Below, one piece after another: positions 1-37,269 of a stretch of DNA of 37,269 nucleotides. How positions within the stretch are numbered: the stretch's first letter is position 1; each line of letters opens with the position of its first letter. Source of the DNA: a virus; the IMG/VR virus record IMGVR_UViG_3300042090_002518, positions 1 through 37,269 of that record, one strand, 5' to 3'. The translations under genes were made by a program, and so were the position numbers. The notes below the pieces were generated by a model that worked only from the letters and a program-made list of their open reading frames with translations, was not told where the DNA came from and ran no database searches.

Positions 1-215
1 TGTTCCAATACCGCAATCTGGTTGCCATTTAATGGCTGGATTGGAATTGATTGCTGAGCGTTGATAACACCGCTAAAAAACAACGTCATACCGTCGCCTG
101 TTTGAGGCTGTTGAACTATTGAGTTTACTTGGGGATAAATGCCAAAAAACTCTTCACGATTTTGCGAATAAAATGCCGGAAAGCCAGCCACATATACTGG
201 GGTGTGAATAGTTAG
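1..215. repeat. Left copy of the terminal repeat
   Basis: Matches 37055-37269 over 215 bases with 10 substitutions (positions about 99, 108, 114, 117, 138, 156, 158, 159, 177, 213 in this copy). All lie in one reading frame of the adaptor gene and change no residue. The window is therefore a circle opened inside this gene, with the two ends from slightly different alleles. Confidence 0.9.
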
Positions 216-2537: not shown

Positions 2538-2591
2538 TTATACAGCTAATGTTGCACGAAGATTGATAACCCAAAGATCGTTGGTGATCCG
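2538..2591 (-). other. Capsid exon 5 (last, 54 nt)
   Basis: 17 codons, RITNDLWVINLRATLAV, then TAA. It is too short to be found as a gene on its own. The stop overlaps the AAGGAG of the next gene. Confidence 0.88.
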
Positions 2592-4691
2592 CTATTTGTT
2601 ACTCCCTTTCGGGGGAAGAACCGCTTCGGATTCTTCTCAACTGGTTTCCTCAGTTGTTCGGACTATCGCATCCCATTTATGGGTCTTCTCACTTAGTCTC
2701 TCACGGTGGCTTGCGCCTTCCGCCCTGTCACCGGCTCTTACGCTACGGCTTCCAAGTCAATCAGAGAAGATTTATAGTGCCCCGAAAGTTCAGGCACTTC
2801 TGCAAACTTATAGCCAACAGAGGCGTTAAGCGCCAATGGGTCACTATAAATTGGTGGACGATAAATAAAGCTTGCGCTGTAACCGTCTTGCACGATACAC
2901 GCATAGGCTTCCATACCAACACAGAAAATGTTGTATACGGTAGCGCCTAAGCTTGAACCGTTCGGGGTATTTGAACCTATCGAACTAACCAAGAACCTGA
3001 GATTTCCTATAGCACCCCATTCTGAGCGCAATGCGTTCATTGGAGCTGGATATTGGTTCTTGTGAATAAAGCCGTTCACGTTGTCCAAGTTACCGGTCAA
3101 AAAGGTTGAACATAATGCAAAGTACGCATCTCGAACCGGGGCTGTTCCAAACTTATCTTCACCTTCGATATTCAAATAGTAATTTAATTACTATGTCTGT
3201 TACTTTTTGTGACCCTTCCGGGCGGGGAAACTTCTTCGAATCTCCCTCTCTATATTTCTATAGAGTTCAGACTATCGCATCACCTTGCGGTGCTTTCTCA
3301 CTTAGTCGTTCACGGTGCTTACGCTTCCGCCTTGTCACCCCAAAGGGCTTCCAAGTCTATCAGAGAAAGTTTTACATGGACAATATCTCTATCCATTATC
3401 GTATATGCATTATTATTCAATAATGTACGCACGACGTTATCAACATCAGAACGTGAAATTTCAGTTGGTATATCACCGTTTACGCCGCCAACACAATTAA
3501 TAAATGAAGCGGTTGCTGCAAGCATGTCCCGAGTCAATTGATCTTCGGTTTGACGTAAAGATACGCCAAGACGAGCTGCTGCTTCGTTCAATACTGGATC
3601 TTGGTTTTGAAGGGTGCAATCTGTTACTTTATGACCACAAATGTGGCGATGGGTCTTGTTATTCCCCATTCTTCTGGTTACCCAGAAGCTCGGACTGTCG
3701 CTTAACCTTTCGGTTTCCACTCGCCTCAGTCTCTCACGCTAGTCATTTATTTATTTTAGTTTTACAATGTATATATACACTTTGATATAGGAGAAATCAT
3801 GGATACGCCTCAAGAATTTGCATATTTAGCGGGAATAATTGATGGGGAAGGATCTATATACATTGGTAATTTTAGTAAGAATAAAAAAACGGGTGCTTTG
3901 TATTACCAAACAAATATGGAAGTAACCAATACTGATGAATCTCTTATGAAGTGGCTGACTGAGAAATTTGGAGGAAGAATACATAAATATACAGAAAAAC
4001 AAACTCCAAAAAATTCCAGAAAACCTATCTATAGATGGATTGTTACCAGTGATTTATTGACCTATCTATGCCAACAAATGCTTCCTTATTTAATTATAAA
4101 AAAACGACAGTGCTGGATTATGATTCAAATGAGAAATACATATACCAAAAGCAATTATGTTAAAGGTCATAAAGGAACTCAGCCAATTAGTGAATATATT
4201 ATGAAAATGCGCAAATCATTATTTGATGAGATGCGATCATTACATTGCAGAAACTACAATAAATAAACCCTTGCGCCTTGTTGTCCCATAGGGATTTCCA
4301 AGTCAATCAGAGCGGATTTAAAGCAGGCCATCTGCTTACAAAACCAAGAAATTTCAAAGAACAATTTTATTAACCTGCTCGTTGAGCGTTACGTATGTCT
4401 TTACGCTTCAACTGTTACGGCACATATACCGTAAAAAGAGATCTTGGCATCAATATCCACCGCGGTCAGGTTTTGAGGCGGAGGCGTGATACCAGAATTT
4501 CCAAGTGGAACCATTGCTGTATTGAGAGGATTATATCTTCTCATACGCAACGTTGTACCGCCATTGCGTGGCATTTGCTTTGGCATGGCTGGGATCTTAT
4601 GTATCATATTTGGAACTGGTACGGACAAAAGCTTATAAGAAAAGCTTTGCTGCACCGGCGCCGGTAAAGTAGATGTGGTTGTTATTGCCAT
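2538..4691 (-). CDS. Major capsid protein, N4-gp56 family, split by three group I introns and one 29-nt core-less element
   Basis: ATG 4689-4691 follows GGGAG. The exons are 4691-4428, 4398-4373, 3616-3391, 3172-2792 and 2591-2538, together 951 nt or 316 residues ending at TAA 2538-2540. Joined, they restore family landmarks across every junction: KISFYG+TYVTLNEQ, LNEQ+VTLQNQDPVLNEAAARLG, LLNNNAYTIMD+NIEGEDKFGTAPVRDAY, and GYKFAEVP+RITNDLWVINLRATLAV. The N-terminus (LPAPVQQSFSYKLLS, GGTTLRMRRYNPLNTAMVPLG) and the C-terminal NDLWVINLRATL are typical of this HK97-fold capsid family. The scaffold candidate lies upstream. Unspliced, the message would give only a 96-residue product ending at TAA 4401-4403. 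Confidence 0.92.
2592..2791 (-). ncRNA. Group I intron c of the capsid gene (200 nt, no ORF)
   Basis: The 5' exon end GUGCCU pairs with GGGCAC (2777-2782): P1 with U-G. The guide bases UUCG pair with the next exon, CGGA (4-bp P10 including one G-U). The intron ends in G (2592). P7 strands are GAGAGACTAAGTG (2690-2702) and GATGCGATAGTCCGAAC (2656-2672); P8 is CCCA-TAAA-TGGG (2672-2683); P9 is CAACTG/CAGTTG (2638-2656). It shares CTGATTGACTTGGAAGCC with the other introns. Confidence 0.9.
2792..3172 (-). other. Capsid exon 4
   Basis: 381 nt, 127 codons, NIEGEDKFGTAPVRDAYF to GYKFAEVP. It ends with U (CCU) paired in P1 of intron c. Confidence 0.88.
3173..3390 (-). ncRNA. Group I intron b of the capsid gene (218 nt, no ORF)
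   Basis: The 5' exon end AUGGAU pairs with GUCCAU (3376-3381): P1 with U-G. The guide bases GAUAUU pair perfectly with the start of the next exon, AAUAUC (6-bp P10). The intron ends in G (3173). P7 strands are GAACGACTAAGTG (3299-3311) and GATGCGATAGTCTGAAC (3265-3281); P8 is CACC-GCAA-GGTG (3281-3292); P9 is CTCTATA-GAAA-TATAGAG (3248-3265). The core is closely similar to intron c. It carries no gene and relies on others for mobility. Confidence 0.9.
3391..3616 (-). other. Capsid exon 3
   Basis: 226 nt encoding VTLQNQDPVLNEAAARLG through LLNNNAYTIMD. It begins right after the terminal G of intron a and ends with U (GAU). Confidence 0.88.
3617..4372 (-). ncRNA. Group I intron a of the capsid gene, carrying an antisense LAGLIDADG gene
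   Basis: 756 nt. The 5' exon end GAGCAGGU pairs with GCCUGCUU (4321-4328) to form an 8-bp P1 with the terminal U-G pair. The intron ends in G (3617). Core parts on the minus strand: P7 strands at 3724-3735 (GAGAGACTGAGG) and 3688-3701 (GCGACAGTCCGAGC); P8 as AACC-GAAA-GGTT (3704-3715); P9 hairpin with GTAA loop (3671-3688). The P10 match is short (2 bp). The endonuclease gene sits in what corresponds to the P6 loop of the other two introns. Confidence 0.88.
3799..4266 (+). CDS. LAGLIDADG homing endonuclease inside intron a, antisense to the capsid gene
   Basis: 155 residues, ATG at 3799 behind TAGGAG. One LAGLIDADG motif is present at residues 8-22 (YLAGIIDGEGSIYIG), so it would act as a homodimer. 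Such enzymes cut intron-less alleles so that the intron is copied in. It is read in the opposite direction to the intron that carries it, so it needs its own promoter. A weak candidate, TTTACA then GATATA 17 bases later, lies just upstream. A basic C-terminal half (RWIVTSDLLTYL, IIKKRQCW) matches the usual fold. Confidence 0.9.
   Translation: MDTPQEFAYLAGIIDGEGSIYIGNFSKNKKTGALYYQTNMEVTNTDESLMKWLTEKFGGRIHKYTEKQTPKNSRKPIYRWIVTSDLLTYLCQQMLPYLIIKKRQCWIMIQMRNTYTKSNYVKGHKGTQPISEYIMKMRKSLFDEMRSLHCRNYNK
4373..4398 (-). other. Capsid exon 2 (26-nt micro-exon)
   Basis: Encodes TYVTLNEQ plus two bases of the next codon (GT|C). It lies between the 29-nt element and the endonuclease-bearing intron. The frame and the conserved YG-TY-LNEQVTL spacing of the family are restored only when both flanking segments are removed. 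Confidence 0.8.
4399..4427 (-). ncRNA. 29-nt core-less group I intron element (P1 and P10 guide, no ribozyme core)
   Basis: The upstream exon end UUACGGU pairs with GCCGUAA inside the element (7 bp, U-G wobble at the splice base). The preceding UAUGU pairs with the first bases of the downstream exon, ACAUA (5-bp P10). The element starts after U and ends in G, as group I introns do. It lacks P3-P8 altogether. GTAACAG inside it is the tail motif of two of the three complete introns (the third has GTAACAA), which suggests IGS fused directly to a 3' tail. Its length (29) breaks frame and places TAA at 4401-4403. Confidence 0.75.
4428..4691 (-). other. Capsid exon 1
   Basis: 88 codons from the start to KISFYG. 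The last base is U (GGU), paired with G in the guide sequence of the following 29-nt element. Confidence 0.85.
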
Positions 4692-23074: not shown

Positions 23075-23644
23075 CTAAGAAAATAAAATCGTTGTGAAAA
23101 AATAGCCGGCACTGGCTGAAGAATTGGTTGCCATATATCCCACCAAATCACCAGCATTGCAGCTGGCATTATGTACTAAATCCTGGAAAACGCCCGTTGT
23201 GGAAGCGGGAACAGTAACAGTAATAGAGGTTAATACATTGTTGATAGATAATGTTATGACCGTATTAGCTGCTGAAGTATTTACGGCCAAATATACACTT
23301 AAATTATTAAATGTTCCTGCCGTAGGCATAATGGTAAACGCACTCGTATAGGCCACAAACCCAACAAATTGCGTGCCGTCTGATCCGATTAATGGCAAAT
23401 TTTGACTGCCAGTGCTGATAATACGACCGACAGAACTTATTACCATATTTCCAGACGCTGAAGAAGCTCCAAAAATTGGCGGATTGCCCGCTCCACCTTG
23501 ACTCAATAAAATTTGGCCTGCCGTGCCTGCGCTCGTCGAATTTAATTTAGTACCATCATAATAGACCACGCCATCACTGGTATAGGATTGGGCATTCGTA
23601 CCGCCTTCGACAATCGGCATTGGGGAAATTCTTTTATATGCCAT
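23075..23644 (-). CDS. Tail-fibre paralogue 1 (shared N-domain)
   Basis: 189 residues, ATG at 23644. The N-terminal 60 residues (MAYKRISPMPIVEGGTNAQ, DGVVYYDGTKLNSTSAG, GQILLSQGGAGNPP) are shared with the next three upstream genes. The C-terminal beta domain is its own, with TVPASTTGVFQDLVHNA like its neighbours. Likely a small fibre or receptor-binding subunit. Confidence 0.65.
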   Translation of the reverse strand: MAYKRISPMPIVEGGTNAQSYTSDGVVYYDGTKLNSTSAGTAGQILLSQGGAGNPPIFGASSASGNMVISSVGRIISTGSQNLPLIGSDGTQFVGFVAYTSAFTIMPTAGTFNNLSVYLAVNTSAANTVITLSINNVLTSITVTVPASTTGVFQDLVHNASCNAGDLVGYMATNSSASAGYFFTTILFS

Positions 23645-23658
23645 GATTTTTCATTCCT

Positions 23659-24303
23659 TTAAGCTGTATAAGTAAATGAAACGACCCCAAAAATAAGAAC
23701 GCCTGCTCCTTCTGTTGGCGGACTCACTACAAGGAGTGCAGTATCGCTTGCGCCCGTAAATGCGACGCTGTGCGTCGTGTCACTAAAGGTGCCTGTCGTG
23801 TTGCCTGGAATAGTAAATGTTAATGCAGTTGCCACATTATTTTTATACAAAGTAACGGTCACTGAGGCGCTCGAATTGTTGGAATAGATATAACCAAACA
23901 GATTGGCCGCGGTGCCATTTGCTGCAAAAATACCAGATACATTCACTACTGATGATACGGCGCTACCGGTAGAGTAAATGCCCTGAGGCAAGCATGTCTG
24001 TATATTATAATTTGCATACACCGAAGGCACGGTAAAGCCGCCAGTTAATGGATAATAGACCGTTCCTGGATTACTGGTGCCCCCAACACCACAAATCATA
24101 ACCGATGATCCAGAAGCGCCAGCATTTTGGAATGTAGGTGCCACTCCTGCGCCATTACTTGTCAACACTTGTGCGTTCGTGCCGGCACCTGTTGTTACCA
24201 ATCGGGTACCATCAAAATAGACGACGCCATCTTGTGTGGCCATAGCAGTTGCGTTCGTACCACCTTCTACGATAGGCGTAGGTGAAATTCTTTTATATGC
24301 CAT
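23659..24303 (-). CDS. Tail-fibre paralogue 2 (shared N-domain)
   Basis: 214 residues, ATG at 24303. Same N-domain (MAYKRISPTPIVEGGTNA, DGVVYFDGTRL, QVLTSNGAGVAPTFQ). The C-domain carries VTLYKNNVATALTFTIPGN then TTGTFSDTTHSVAFTG, related to paralogue 3. Probably a receptor-binding module. Confidence 0.65.
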   Translation of the reverse strand: MAYKRISPTPIVEGGTNATAMATQDGVVYFDGTRLVTTGAGTNAQVLTSNGAGVAPTFQNAGASGSSVMICGVGGTSNPGTVYYPLTGGFTVPSVYANYNIQTCLPQGIYSTGSAVSSVVNVSGIFAANGTAANLFGYIYSNNSSASVTVTLYKNNVATALTFTIPGNTTGTFSDTTHSVAFTGASDTALLVVSPPTEGAGVLIFGVVSFTYTA

Positions 24304-24312
24304 CGGCTCTCC

Positions 24313-24927
24313 TTATGTGTGATACGACATGCTTATGGTACCAAAAACCTGTCCCGTTACCGCAGCACTTATTTCCCATTGAATAATCTGTCCTTGAGAA
24401 ACTGAAACGGTATGAGTGGTGTCGCTAAAAGCGCCCGTTGTTCCAGCTGGTATTGTAGCAACTAATGCGGTATTGCTGCCGTTAACATTTAAGGTCACCG
24501 TCAGCGGACTCGTTGACGCATTTGAAGTTACATATACAAATAAGTTAAGGGCTGTTACCGCAATAGGCATAATAAAGTTGTTATACGCTTGTACGGTATC
24601 TACTCCTGTAATAGGGTTTCTATATCCAAATGGTGAATGCCAACTTTTTGACCCCGTTGTGGCCAAACAAACGATGTTATCTGGTCCACCGGGTCCCAAT
24701 GGTTCACCCAAAAGGGGAAGTATGCCCATACCGCTGCCGCCACTTGCAGCCTGATATGTCGGCGCCATCCCTGCACCATTAGAGGTCAATACTTGAGTTG
24801 CAGTCCCCGTCGCCGTCACATTGATCTTGGTACCATCAAAATAGGCAGTACCATCGGTTGTAGCAAACGTTTTCGTATTCGTGCCACCTTCTACTATGGG
24901 CGTTGGAGATATTCGTTTATACGCCAT
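24313..24927 (-). CDS. Tail-fibre paralogue 3 (shared N-domain)
   Basis: 204 residues, ATG at 24927. N-domain as in its neighbours (MAYKRISPTPIVEGGTNT, DGTAYFDGTKINVT). The C-domain has VTLNVNGSNTALVATIPAGT and TTGAFSDTTHTVSVSQG. Closest to paralogue 2. Confidence 0.65.
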   Translation of the reverse strand: MAYKRISPTPIVEGGTNTKTFATTDGTAYFDGTKINVTATGTATQVLTSNGAGMAPTYQAASGGSGMGILPLLGEPLGPGGPDNIVCLATTGSKSWHSPFGYRNPITGVDTVQAYNNFIMPIAVTALNLFVYVTSNASTSPLTVTLNVNGSNTALVATIPAGTTGAFSDTTHTVSVSQGQIIQWEISAAVTGQVFGTISMSYHT

Positions 24928-24929
24928 AG

Positions 24930-25091
24930 TTATCCTTTATTGCCACTTAAAGTCGATTTAATCACTTCAATCTCTTGTTTAATGAGCTCAAGATCTTTTA
25001 CAATCTGTTCAACTGCTTGCGTGACTTGTTGTACTTCTACTTTCAAACCGTCGATTTTGCCTTTGATATCTGATAGAAAAAATATAGACAT
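24930..25091 (-). CDS. 53-residue coiled-coil protein within the fibre array
   Basis: ATG 25091 follows GGAG. After IDGLKVEV it is a heptad-patterned helix (QQVTQAVEQIVKDLELIKQE, IEVIKSTLSG). It lies between two fibre paralogues. It may be a trimerisation or fibre-assembly helper. Short enough to escape usual gene calling. Confidence 0.6.
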   Translation of the reverse strand: MSIFFLSDIKGKIDGLKVEVQQVTQAVEQIVKDLELIKQEIEVIKSTLSGNKG

Positions 25092-25100
25092 ACTTCTCCT

Positions 25101-25808
25101 TTATTTTGATATACCGTAGAGGCTAATTTCCGCGGTTAATGTATCACCGGTAGAAGGTATAATCTGAAAAGCGTTCATCACGGTTGCCGTATGATAGATT
25201 CCCCATGATTGATCACTAAATACACCAGTCGTTGTGTTGGCCCAAACCGAATTGCCCTGAAATGTAGGAAATGAACCATTCGTAAAATTGTAAAGATATA
25301 AGGTTGCACCGCCAACATAACCGGTATTGGATTCCGTGAGAGTAAATGCATTTGTAGAGGTACCATTAGAGCTGGGCGATCCGGAATTATATTGCCATCG
25401 ATTCCATGTGCTATTGTATCCTGAACTTATATAGGATGAACCGCCATTAGATGATAGTTGTAATAAATAGCTGGCAGATCCAGATGTGGTCATGCTCGCT
25501 ATGGTAATCACAAAAACGTTATAGGCATTGGTTATTCCTGTCGTGAATGTGACACCACTAGAAGCCACTAAATTATTTGTTTGAATTAATGCCCACCCGC
25601 CGCCTCCGCTGGCAGCCTGAAATGTTGGTGCAACGGCAGGCCCATTTGATGTAAGTACCTGCCCGGCTACGCCGACCGTTGTTGTATTTAAAATGGTACC
25701 ATCAAAATATACGACGCCGTCAGCATTGGTCATCGTGGTAGCGTTCGTGCCACCTTGTGCTATTGATACTGGAATATTACTATTCCATGCATTATTTGTC
25801 GCCATCAT
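25101..25808 (-). CDS. Tail-fibre paralogue 4 (divergent N-terminus)
   Basis: 235 residues, ATG at 25808. It shares the internal part of the N-domain (IAQGGTNATTMTNADGVVYF, QVLTSNGPAVAPTFQAASGG) but begins MMATNNAWNSNIPVS. The C-domain is larger, with LIQTNNLVASSGVTFTTGI and a Ser/Gly-rich beta region. Likely a fibre or receptor-binding protein. Confidence 0.65.
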   Translation of the reverse strand: MMATNNAWNSNIPVSIAQGGTNATTMTNADGVVYFDGTILNTTTVGVAGQVLTSNGPAVAPTFQAASGGGGWALIQTNNLVASSGVTFTTGITNAYNVFVITIASMTTSGSASYLLQLSSNGGSSYISSGYNSTWNRWQYNSGSPSSNGTSTNAFTLTESNTGYVGGATLYLYNFTNGSFPTFQGNSVWANTTTGVFSDQSWGIYHTATVMNAFQIIPSTGDTLTAEISLYGISK

Positions 25809-36396: not shown

Positions 36397-37269
36397 TTAA
36401 AATTGTCCTGTGCCGCCAAATCCACCATAACCCCATCCCGTGCCGCCAGTACCGCCTGACAAGCCATCAGTATATATGGTTGCCGTACGTTCGTTGGTGT
36501 ATTGTACAATAGTTCTACGCTGACACAATGCTTCTTGTTTTTTAAATTCAGGCATAATCAGGGAAACTGATTCAAGGTCCATTCTATCTTCAAATATTTT
36601 CTTTGCCGCGCCATAAGCAATATATTGCCACCATTCTTCAAGTTCTGGCGTCATGTCTACATCAAGAAGAGCAGTAGGTCTAATATAGACTTCAAAATTG
36701 ATCTCATATGGCTGATCTGGCACCGGGCGTATTCTAATTTTATTGTCATGAAATAACATTGCCTGTGGTCGCGCTGCCACTAATGGAATGGTTTGAGAGA
36801 ATACCGGCTGTCCGGGTCCAGGTGGGTTGGTAAATGTCACCCTATATTGGCCCGTCAAATAGTTTACATTGTTGTTAGGCAGCAAATCGGCAGGATAATA
36901 TAAAGGCACGGTGGGTAAATTGAGCATGGGATCGTATAGATTTCCCCAGACGGTAAAGTTGCCAGTGATTGCATCCCGTAAAGGATAATCGATCATCTGA
37001 ATGCCTTCTGCTTCAGCAGTGAGATCGCCAATAGATGACAACAGCACTTCATTCTGTTCCAATACCGCAATCTGGTTGCCATTTAATGGCTGGATTGGAA
37101 TTGATTGCTGAGCGTTGATAACACCGCTAAAAAACAACGTCATACCGTCGCCCGTTTGAGGTTGTTGGACGATTGAGTTTACTTGGGGATAGATGCCAAA
37201 AAACTCTTCCCTGTTTTGCGAATAAAATGCGGGAAAGCCAGCCACATATACTGGGGTGTGAATAGTGAG
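36397..37269 (-). CDS. Head-tail adaptor protein, C-terminal part (continues from position 482 through the junction)
   Basis: This is the remainder of the adaptor gene that begins at 482. The frame is open to the window edge, and an internal GTG at 37245 can be mistaken for a start. Bases 37055-37269 duplicate 1-215 with 10 substitutions, all silent. The C-terminal third has a helical segment ending in AAKKIFEDRMDLE, then a glycine-rich tail (GGTGGTGWGYGGFGGTG). It is followed 9 bp downstream by a tail-fibre gene. The role, attaching the tail to the portal, is inferred from position and the N-terminal part. Confidence 0.6.
   Translation of the reverse strand, partial: LTIHTPVYVAGFPAFYSQNREEFFGIYPQVNSIVQQPQTGDGMTLFFSGVINAQQSIPIQPLNGNQIAVLEQNEVLLSSIGDLTAEAEGIQMIDYPLRDAITGNFTVWGNLYDPMLNLPTVPLYYPADLLPNNNVNYLTGQYRVTFTNPPGPGQPVFSQTIPLVAARPQAMLFHDNKIRIRPVPDQPYEINFEVYIRPTALLDVDMTPELEEWWQYIAYGAAKKIFEDRMDLESVSLIMPEFKKQEALCQRRTIVQYTNERTATIYTDGLSGGTGGTGWGYGGFGGTGQF
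37055..37269. repeat. Right copy of the terminal repeat
   Basis: Second copy of the 215-base overlap, joining to base 1 at 37055. Differences from the left copy are all synonymous, for example CGT versus AGG for Arg and ATA versus ATC for Ile. Confidence 0.9.

What the first reader, a model, noticed from the sequence alone, without database searches (positions are those of the whole stretch)
2538..4691. Major capsid gene split by three group I introns
Three introns (3617-4372, 3173-3390, 2592-2791) interrupt one capsid gene. Each has a U at the 5' exon end, a terminal G and a guide helix with U-G wobble. P10 is 6 bp and 4 bp in two of them and about 2 bp in the endonuclease-bearing one. P7, P8 and P9 can be assigned in each. 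The spliced 316-residue protein matches the N4-gp56 family across every junction. With the 29-nt element this makes four insertions in about 950 coding bases, leaving exons of 26 and 54 nt. Phage capsid genes with single introns are known; this density is unusual, and automatic annotation would report several unrelated fragments.
Basis: partly seen in the sequence, partly recalled or inferred. Interest (0 to 1): 0.85.

Follow-up and report, generated by a model that had tools for sequence, protein, structure and literature searches.

The report
Core-less mini-introns beside group I introns
This phage's capsid gene is cut not by three but by four introns, and the fourth is a 29-letter intron with splice signals but no catalytic core; a short guide pairs it next to the following intron, so it probably borrows that intron's ribozyme, and the same arrangement recurs in about 80 capsid, coat and portal genes of uncultured phages.

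Summary
The capsid gene (4691-2538, minus strand) holds three group I introns at the stated coordinates. A covariance model built from 38 introns of other contigs finds them; Rfam is too insensitive. The spliced 316-aa product is an N4-gp56 capsid, and 76 of the 80 best relatives read through uninterrupted. The density is not exceptional for this lineage: 36 sites for full introns and up to five insertions per gene.

It is a fourth, core-less intron (4427-4399): a group I P1 helix with U.G at the 5' splice site, a P10 helix and a terminal G, but no P3-P9. I found 59 distinct copies (28-59 nt) at this capsid site, 20 in P22-like coat genes and two in one portal gene. A guide segment (PX, about 9-12 bp) pairs with the exon immediately upstream of the next full intron's P1, wherever that intron sits. 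The pairing covaries strongly. Every capsid mini-intron whose contig runs on is followed by a full intron.

Most likely it is a non-autonomous group I intron spliced by the neighbouring intron's core, with PX as the tether. Splicing itself is untested; no RNA data were available.

The parts
4428..4691 (-). capsid exon 1 (264 nt), ends ..UACGGU
   Evidence: spliced alignment
4399..4427 (-). core-less mini-intron, 29 nt, terminal G at 4399
4428..4433 (-). P1 of mini-intron, exon strand UACGGU (pairs with 4421-4416 GCCGUA; U4428.G4421 at splice site)
   Evidence: helix in MFE fold
4416..4421 (-). P1 of mini-intron, guide strand GCCGUA
4422..4426 (-). P10 of mini-intron, intron strand UAUGU (pairs with 4398-4394 ACAUA)
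4403..4412 (-). PX guide strand GUUGAAGCGU inside mini-intron (pairs with 4389-4381)
4381..4389 (-). PX exon strand ACGCUCAAC, directly abutting P1 of intron 1
4373..4398 (-). capsid exon 2 (26 nt, TYVTLNEQV)
   Evidence: relatives
4373..4380 (-). P1 of intron 1, exon strand GAGCAGGU (pairs with 4328-4321 GCCUGCUU)
3617..4372 (-). group I intron 1 (756 nt); core halves 4318-about 4266 and about 3740-3687 separated by the endonuclease gene
3799..4266 (+). LAGLIDADG homing endonuclease gene (155 aa), antisense to the intron
   Evidence: PF00961 33.2 bits
3391..3616 (-). capsid exon 3 (226 nt)
3173..3390 (-). group I intron 2 (218 nt); core 3371-3264, 119 bits; P1 3396-3391/3381-3376, P10 3387-3382/3172-3167
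2792..3172 (-). capsid exon 4 (381 nt)
2592..2791 (-). group I intron 3 (200 nt); core 2772-2655, 126 bits; P1 2798-2792/2782-2776, P10 2786-2783/2591-2588
2538..2591 (-). capsid exon 5 (54 nt with stop)
   Evidence: spliced protein TIGR04387 143.7 bits

Best explanation
The capsid gene carries three ordinary group I introns and one core-less, non-autonomous group I intron of 29 nt. The mini-intron keeps only what marks the splice sites: P1 with U.G at the 5' site, P10 holding the 3' exon beside it, and a terminal G. Where a normal intron has its P3-P9 core it has a guide (PX) that pairs with the exon directly upstream of the next intron's P1, so that PX and that P1 abut. Inferred mechanism: the next intron's core takes the mini-intron's P1 and terminal G as substrate and excises it first; this removes PX and frees the next intron's own P1 to dock, and that intron then splices itself. 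PX would tether the mini-intron to a borrowed core and enforce the order (if the full intron left first the core would be lost and the frame broken). Shown: anatomy, covariation, co-occurrence, coding continuity. Inferred: splicing, the borrowed core, the order.
For: 59 distinct capsid copies, 28-59 nt, 5' exon ends in U and insert ends in G in 59/59. P10: position 3 has four pair types with one mismatch in 59; 4.47 of 5 paired against 3.86 +- 0.05 for swapped partners. PX: 8.63 of 9 paired against 7.12 +- 0.12 for exons swapped within class and 6.23 for shuffled guides; its exon strand ends about 8 nt before the next 5' splice site whether that is nt 290, 312, 314 or 350. Same 5' half with different guides fitted to different neighbours (L106/L176, L084/L231). 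57 of 57 capsid copies with enough contig are followed by a full intron; in a sample not chosen for mini-introns 11/22 with such an intron have one and 0/30 without, p 1.2e-5. Full-size introns with the same P1 lie at the same base. Same design in 20 coat-gene copies and twice in a portal gene whose hand-spliced product matches 80 uninterrupted contigs, best 92% over 147 aa.
Against: No RNA data: excision is not shown. A core in trans from any other intron, or minimal self-splicing as claimed for Phialophora, is not excluded. P1 letters of most capsid copies were fixed by the search pattern, and the coat pattern fixed part of P1 and P10, so only the free positions count as covariation there. 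How P1 of the mini-intron reaches the neighbour's active site with PX stacked on that neighbour's own P1 is not modelled.
Confidence: 0.76

Rival explanations
1. The mini-introns self-splice on their own as minimal group I introns, as claimed for the 63-75-nt Phialophora introns; PX merely folds the 3' splice site into place, like the Phialophora PM helix.
For: P1, P10 and a mid-intron/3' exon helix are shared with the Phialophora introns, which are reported to splice in vitro when about 300 nt of context is present (PMC3160393).
Against: Phage copies have no P7 and as little as 28 nt. PX is always registered to the next intron's P1, even across 48-86-nt exons where a nearer target would do, and all 57 testable capsid copies have a following full intron.
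Confidence: 0.08
2. The mini-intron is excised by a group I core in trans, supplied by any related intron in the cell, and PX has another role such as ordering or regulating the next intron's splicing.
For: Related cores are abundant in these phages; engineered group I ribozymes can remove introns in trans (PMC4094466).
Against: Does not explain why mini-introns occur only next to a full intron and why the guide is matched to that neighbour.
Confidence: 0.1
3. The element is a translational bypass (hop) element, as in T4 gene 60 or the byp elements, not an intron.
For: Short non-coding insert in a coding sequence, with hairpins and usually an in-frame stop.
Against: No landing codon: the last triplet of the insert is never GGN (0/59) although take-off would be GGT; full-size group I introns occupy the same site with the same P1; P10 and U.G/terminal-G signatures are not expected.
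Confidence: 0.03
4. The short insert is an assembly error, a decayed pseudo-intron or a duplication with no function.
For: Metagenomic contig; no RNA data.
Against: About 80 copies from many samples with compensatory changes and intact reading frames on both sides.
Confidence: 0.02

Closest known systems
Small group I introns of Phialophora rDNA (PaSSU type, 63-75 nt; PMC3160393)
   Same: P1 with G.U at the 5' site, P10, a helix between mid-intron and 3' exon (PM), core otherwise missing
   Different: They keep a P7 and end in U; they sit in rRNA genes; no registration to a neighbouring full intron is described. Phage copies are 28-59 nt, end in G, have no P7, and PX abuts the next intron's P1
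Phage group I introns (Twort orf142, Bastillevirinae, mycobacteriophage LittleE capsid)
   Same: Full group I introns with homing endonucleases in phage genes, up to three per gene; in LittleE a capsid gene with an antisense endonuclease (PMC3706429, PMC11878797)
   Different: No core-less partner introns described there; here 36 intron sites in one capsid family
Spliceozyme (engineered Tetrahymena ribozyme; PMC4094466)
   Same: A group I core removes an intron that is not itself
   Different: Engineered, acts from a separate RNA, recognises sites through the ribozyme's own termini; here the substrate brings its own P1 and P10 and a docking guide, in cis
Group III introns and twintrons of Euglena plastids (from own knowledge)
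   Same: Degenerate short introns thought to depend on catalytic parts from elsewhere
   Different: Group II derived, plastid, about 100 nt
Translational bypass elements (T4 gene 60, byp; from own knowledge)
   Same: Short untranslated insert in a coding sequence
   Different: No matched take-off and landing codons here; group I splice signatures instead

Membership tests
Group I introns (introns 1-3) | P1 with U.G at the 5' splice site | tested here: met
   three of three
Group I introns (introns 1-3) | core P3, P4-P6, P7, P8 with covariation | tested here: met
   (intron 1 core split by the endonuclease gene)
Group I introns (introns 1-3) | terminal G and P10 | tested here: met
   terminal G in all; P10 6 and 4 bp, only 2 bp in intron 1
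Group I introns (introns 1-3) | Rfam Intron_gpI above gathering score | tested here: not met
   27.6 bits at best against 50; sensitivity limit of the model, not a structural failure
Group I introns (introns 1-3) | self-splicing | not testable with these tools
   no RNA data
Autonomous group I intron (29-nt element) | P1 with U.G, P10, terminal G | tested here: met
Autonomous group I intron (29-nt element) | catalytic core P3-P9 | tested here: not met
   28-59 nt in all; no room for the 118-position core modelled
Phialophora-type small group I introns | P1, P10 and mid-intron/3' exon helix | tested here: met
   definition
Phialophora-type small group I introns | P7 | tested here: not met
   the 17 nt after P1 are PX and its linkers in the window copy
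Phialophora-type small group I introns | terminal U | tested here: not met
   G in 59/59
Translational bypass elements | matched take-off and landing codons | tested here: not met
   0/59
N4-gp56 major capsid family | full-length match of the spliced protein | tested here: met
   TIGR04387 residues 4-310, 143.7 bits, cut-off 60

The most novel reading that the evidence does not exclude
A natural class of non-autonomous group I introns: substrates that keep only P1, P10 and a terminal G plus a guide that docks them beside an autonomous group I intron, whose ribozyme therefore excises two introns in a fixed order; in effect a parasite of a parasite and a natural spliceozyme.
Probability: 0.72. 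Interest if true: 0.93.

Novelty: new variant of a known kind. Interest (0 to 1): 0.86.

Why it matters
If right, group I introns have a dependent form: introns under 60 nt that carry splice-site helices and a docking guide but borrow catalysis. That would be a natural precedent for one ribozyme serving several introns, a step often invoked for the origin of the spliceosome, and it can be tested in a tube with a few hundred nucleotides of RNA. Practically, such inserts are missed by intron finders and break virion genes into fragments in metagenomic annotation.

Tried and rejected
Rfam at gathering threshold: no hits, too strict for these introns. Translational bypassing: no landing codon. Splicing exon 1 directly to exon 3: would delete TYVTLNEQV, which the relatives keep. 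Degenerate tandem duplication of exon 2: a faint resemblance in the window copy only. Hits of the PX scan in L095, L100, L101, L114 and L135 look like chance: control windows gave 10 hits in 169 introns. Reference phage records: no match to the window region; the coat-gene query matched MW202674, whose coat gene is annotated in pieces, and an intergenic stretch between two ribonucleotide reductase fragments of isolate CRP-118, neither examined for a mini-intron. Genome contigs: only four MAG contigs, one of them (L314) with a 37-nt copy; no host inferred. Six literature searches found no description of this arrangement; the library holds open-licence papers only.

Full report
WHAT IS THERE. 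The capsid gene runs on the minus strand from 4691 to 2538. A spliced protein-to-DNA aligner that I wrote recovers four insertions: 29 nt after capsid nt 264, 756 nt after nt 290, 218 nt after nt 516 and 200 nt after nt 897, each with a 5' exon ending in U and an insert ending in G (the aligner gives a small bonus for both). The spliced 316-residue product matches TIGR04387 over nearly its whole length. Seventy-six of the 80 best relatives in IMG/VR are uninterrupted, at up to 93% identity.

THE THREE FULL INTRONS ARE GROUP I. Rfam finds them poorly. I built a covariance model from 38 short introns of other contigs, leaving the window out. It hits introns 3 and 2 at 126 and 119 bits and the two halves of intron 1, which are separated by an antisense LAGLIDADG gene. 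The core helices P3, P4, P5, P6, P8 and the P7 pseudoknot are 99.1% paired, with 20 of 29 pairs changed on both sides in at least one sequence.

DENSITY IS NORMAL FOR THIS LINEAGE. Spliced alignment of the capsid against the fetched loci shows 36 sites for full introns and, with one exception, one to five insertions per complete gene among intron- or mini-selected loci.

THE 29-NT ELEMENT IS A FOURTH INTRON. It recurs at the same base in 59 distinct versions of 28-59 nt. Nearly all have: a P1 helix of exon UACGGU with GCCGUA (UUCGGU with GCCGAA where the exon codes FFG), with U.G at the splice site; a P10 helix between the bases just 5' of the guide and the start of the 3' exon; and a terminal G in 59 of 59. 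P10 position 3 shows four pair types with one mismatch in 59. Full-size introns occupy the same base in L095, L217, L222 and L280 with the same P1, so the element looks like such an intron that has lost its core. Most capsid copies were collected with a pattern that fixes the P1 letters, so their P1 constancy is not independent evidence.

PX, THE TETHER. Between P1 and the terminal G lies a guide of about 9-12 nt that pairs with exon sequence ending about 8 nt (the length of P1) upstream of the next intron's 5' splice site. Observed pairing is 8.63 of 9, against 7.12 +- 0.12 after swapping exons among copies of the same class. The target moves with the next intron (nt 290, 312, 314, 350), also where the exon between is long enough to allow pairing elsewhere. 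In the site-290 class exon positions -12 and -14 to -16 each show three or more pair types with few mismatches. Copies with identical 5' halves carry different guides suited to their own neighbours (L106 and L176; L084 and L231). Folded alone, 47 of 52 sequences show P1 of the mini-intron, PX and P1 of the next intron as three successive hairpins; P10 is then a contact between the loops of the first two.

CO-OCCURRENCE. Of 59 capsid copies, two end with the contig; the other 57 are followed by a full group I intron at nt 290-360 (five of them read by eye). In the sample collected by an intron motif, without regard to mini-introns, 11 of 22 genes with such an intron have the mini-intron and 0 of 30 without it (p 1.2e-5). 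On a capsid tree with modest support the trait changes at least 30 times, and in independent pairs it goes with the downstream intron in 8.3 of 10, never against. Full introns without a mini-intron exist at the same sites (L122, L194, several at 312), so the dependence is one-way.

OTHER GENES. Scanning 169 introns of the fetched contigs for a PX upstream (control windows gave 10 chance hits) led to the same design in P22-like coat genes and in a portal gene. A pattern scan then gave 20 distinct coat-gene copies of 32-41 nt; P1 covaries at its free positions (GCUG/CAGU, GCAG/CUGC, GCGG/CCGU), the fourth P10 pair shows four types, and PX abuts P1 of the next intron. Eighty uninterrupted coat relatives confirm the reading across the junction. 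L189 carries two mini-plus-full pairs in one portal gene; the product I spliced by hand across all four inserts matches 80 contigs, at best 92% over 147 residues without interruption.

HOW IT PROBABLY WORKS. The mini-intron has what a group I core reads at the splice sites and nothing that catalyses. The simplest reading is that the neighbour's core excises it before excising itself, with PX bringing the two together and perhaps keeping the neighbour's own P1 from docking too early. Shown by sequence: anatomy, covariation, co-occurrence, coding continuity. Inferred: splicing, donor and order. Nothing here is RNA evidence.

COMPARISON. The nearest natural relatives are the 63-75-nt Phialophora introns with P1, P7, P10 and a mid-intron/3' exon helix; the phage copies lack P7, end in G and are registered to a neighbouring intron. 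The nearest functional analogue is the engineered spliceozyme. I found no report of this arrangement in the open literature searched.

Noticed in passing
window 3799-4266 and site-290 introns of relatives: The LAGLIDADG endonuclease gene is antisense to the intron; the same orientation holds in about 25 of 33 long introns at this site. LittleE has an antisense HNH gene in a capsid intron.
   Followed up: partly
L559 about 2985-3065 (portal gene): A different 48-nt insert: a near-perfect long hairpin (GGGTCTAACGCCTCTC..GAGAGGGGCGTTAGACCC) with a stop in frame, at QSR|W.
   Followed up: no
window 1-215 and 37055-37269: The two ends overlap over 215 bases with 10 mismatches, so the record is nearly but not exactly circular or mixes two strains.
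   Followed up: no
window 23075-25808: Several consecutive genes share an N-terminal module (MAYKRISPTPIVEGGTNA and variants), probably repeated tail or fibre proteins.
   Followed up: no
L211, L205, L253, L264, L275 (mini-introns of 53-59 nt): The long mini-introns seem to hold a further covarying helix between the segment before the guide and the tail (GGAGG/CCUCC, UGCAAG/CUUGCA, GCCAC/GUGGC; read).
   Followed up: partly
window 4330-4360 and most site-290 introns: A conserved block (TTCTTTGAAATTTCTTGGTTTTGTAAGCA) in the P1 loop of site-290 introns, absent from the short ones L090 and L118.
   Followed up: no
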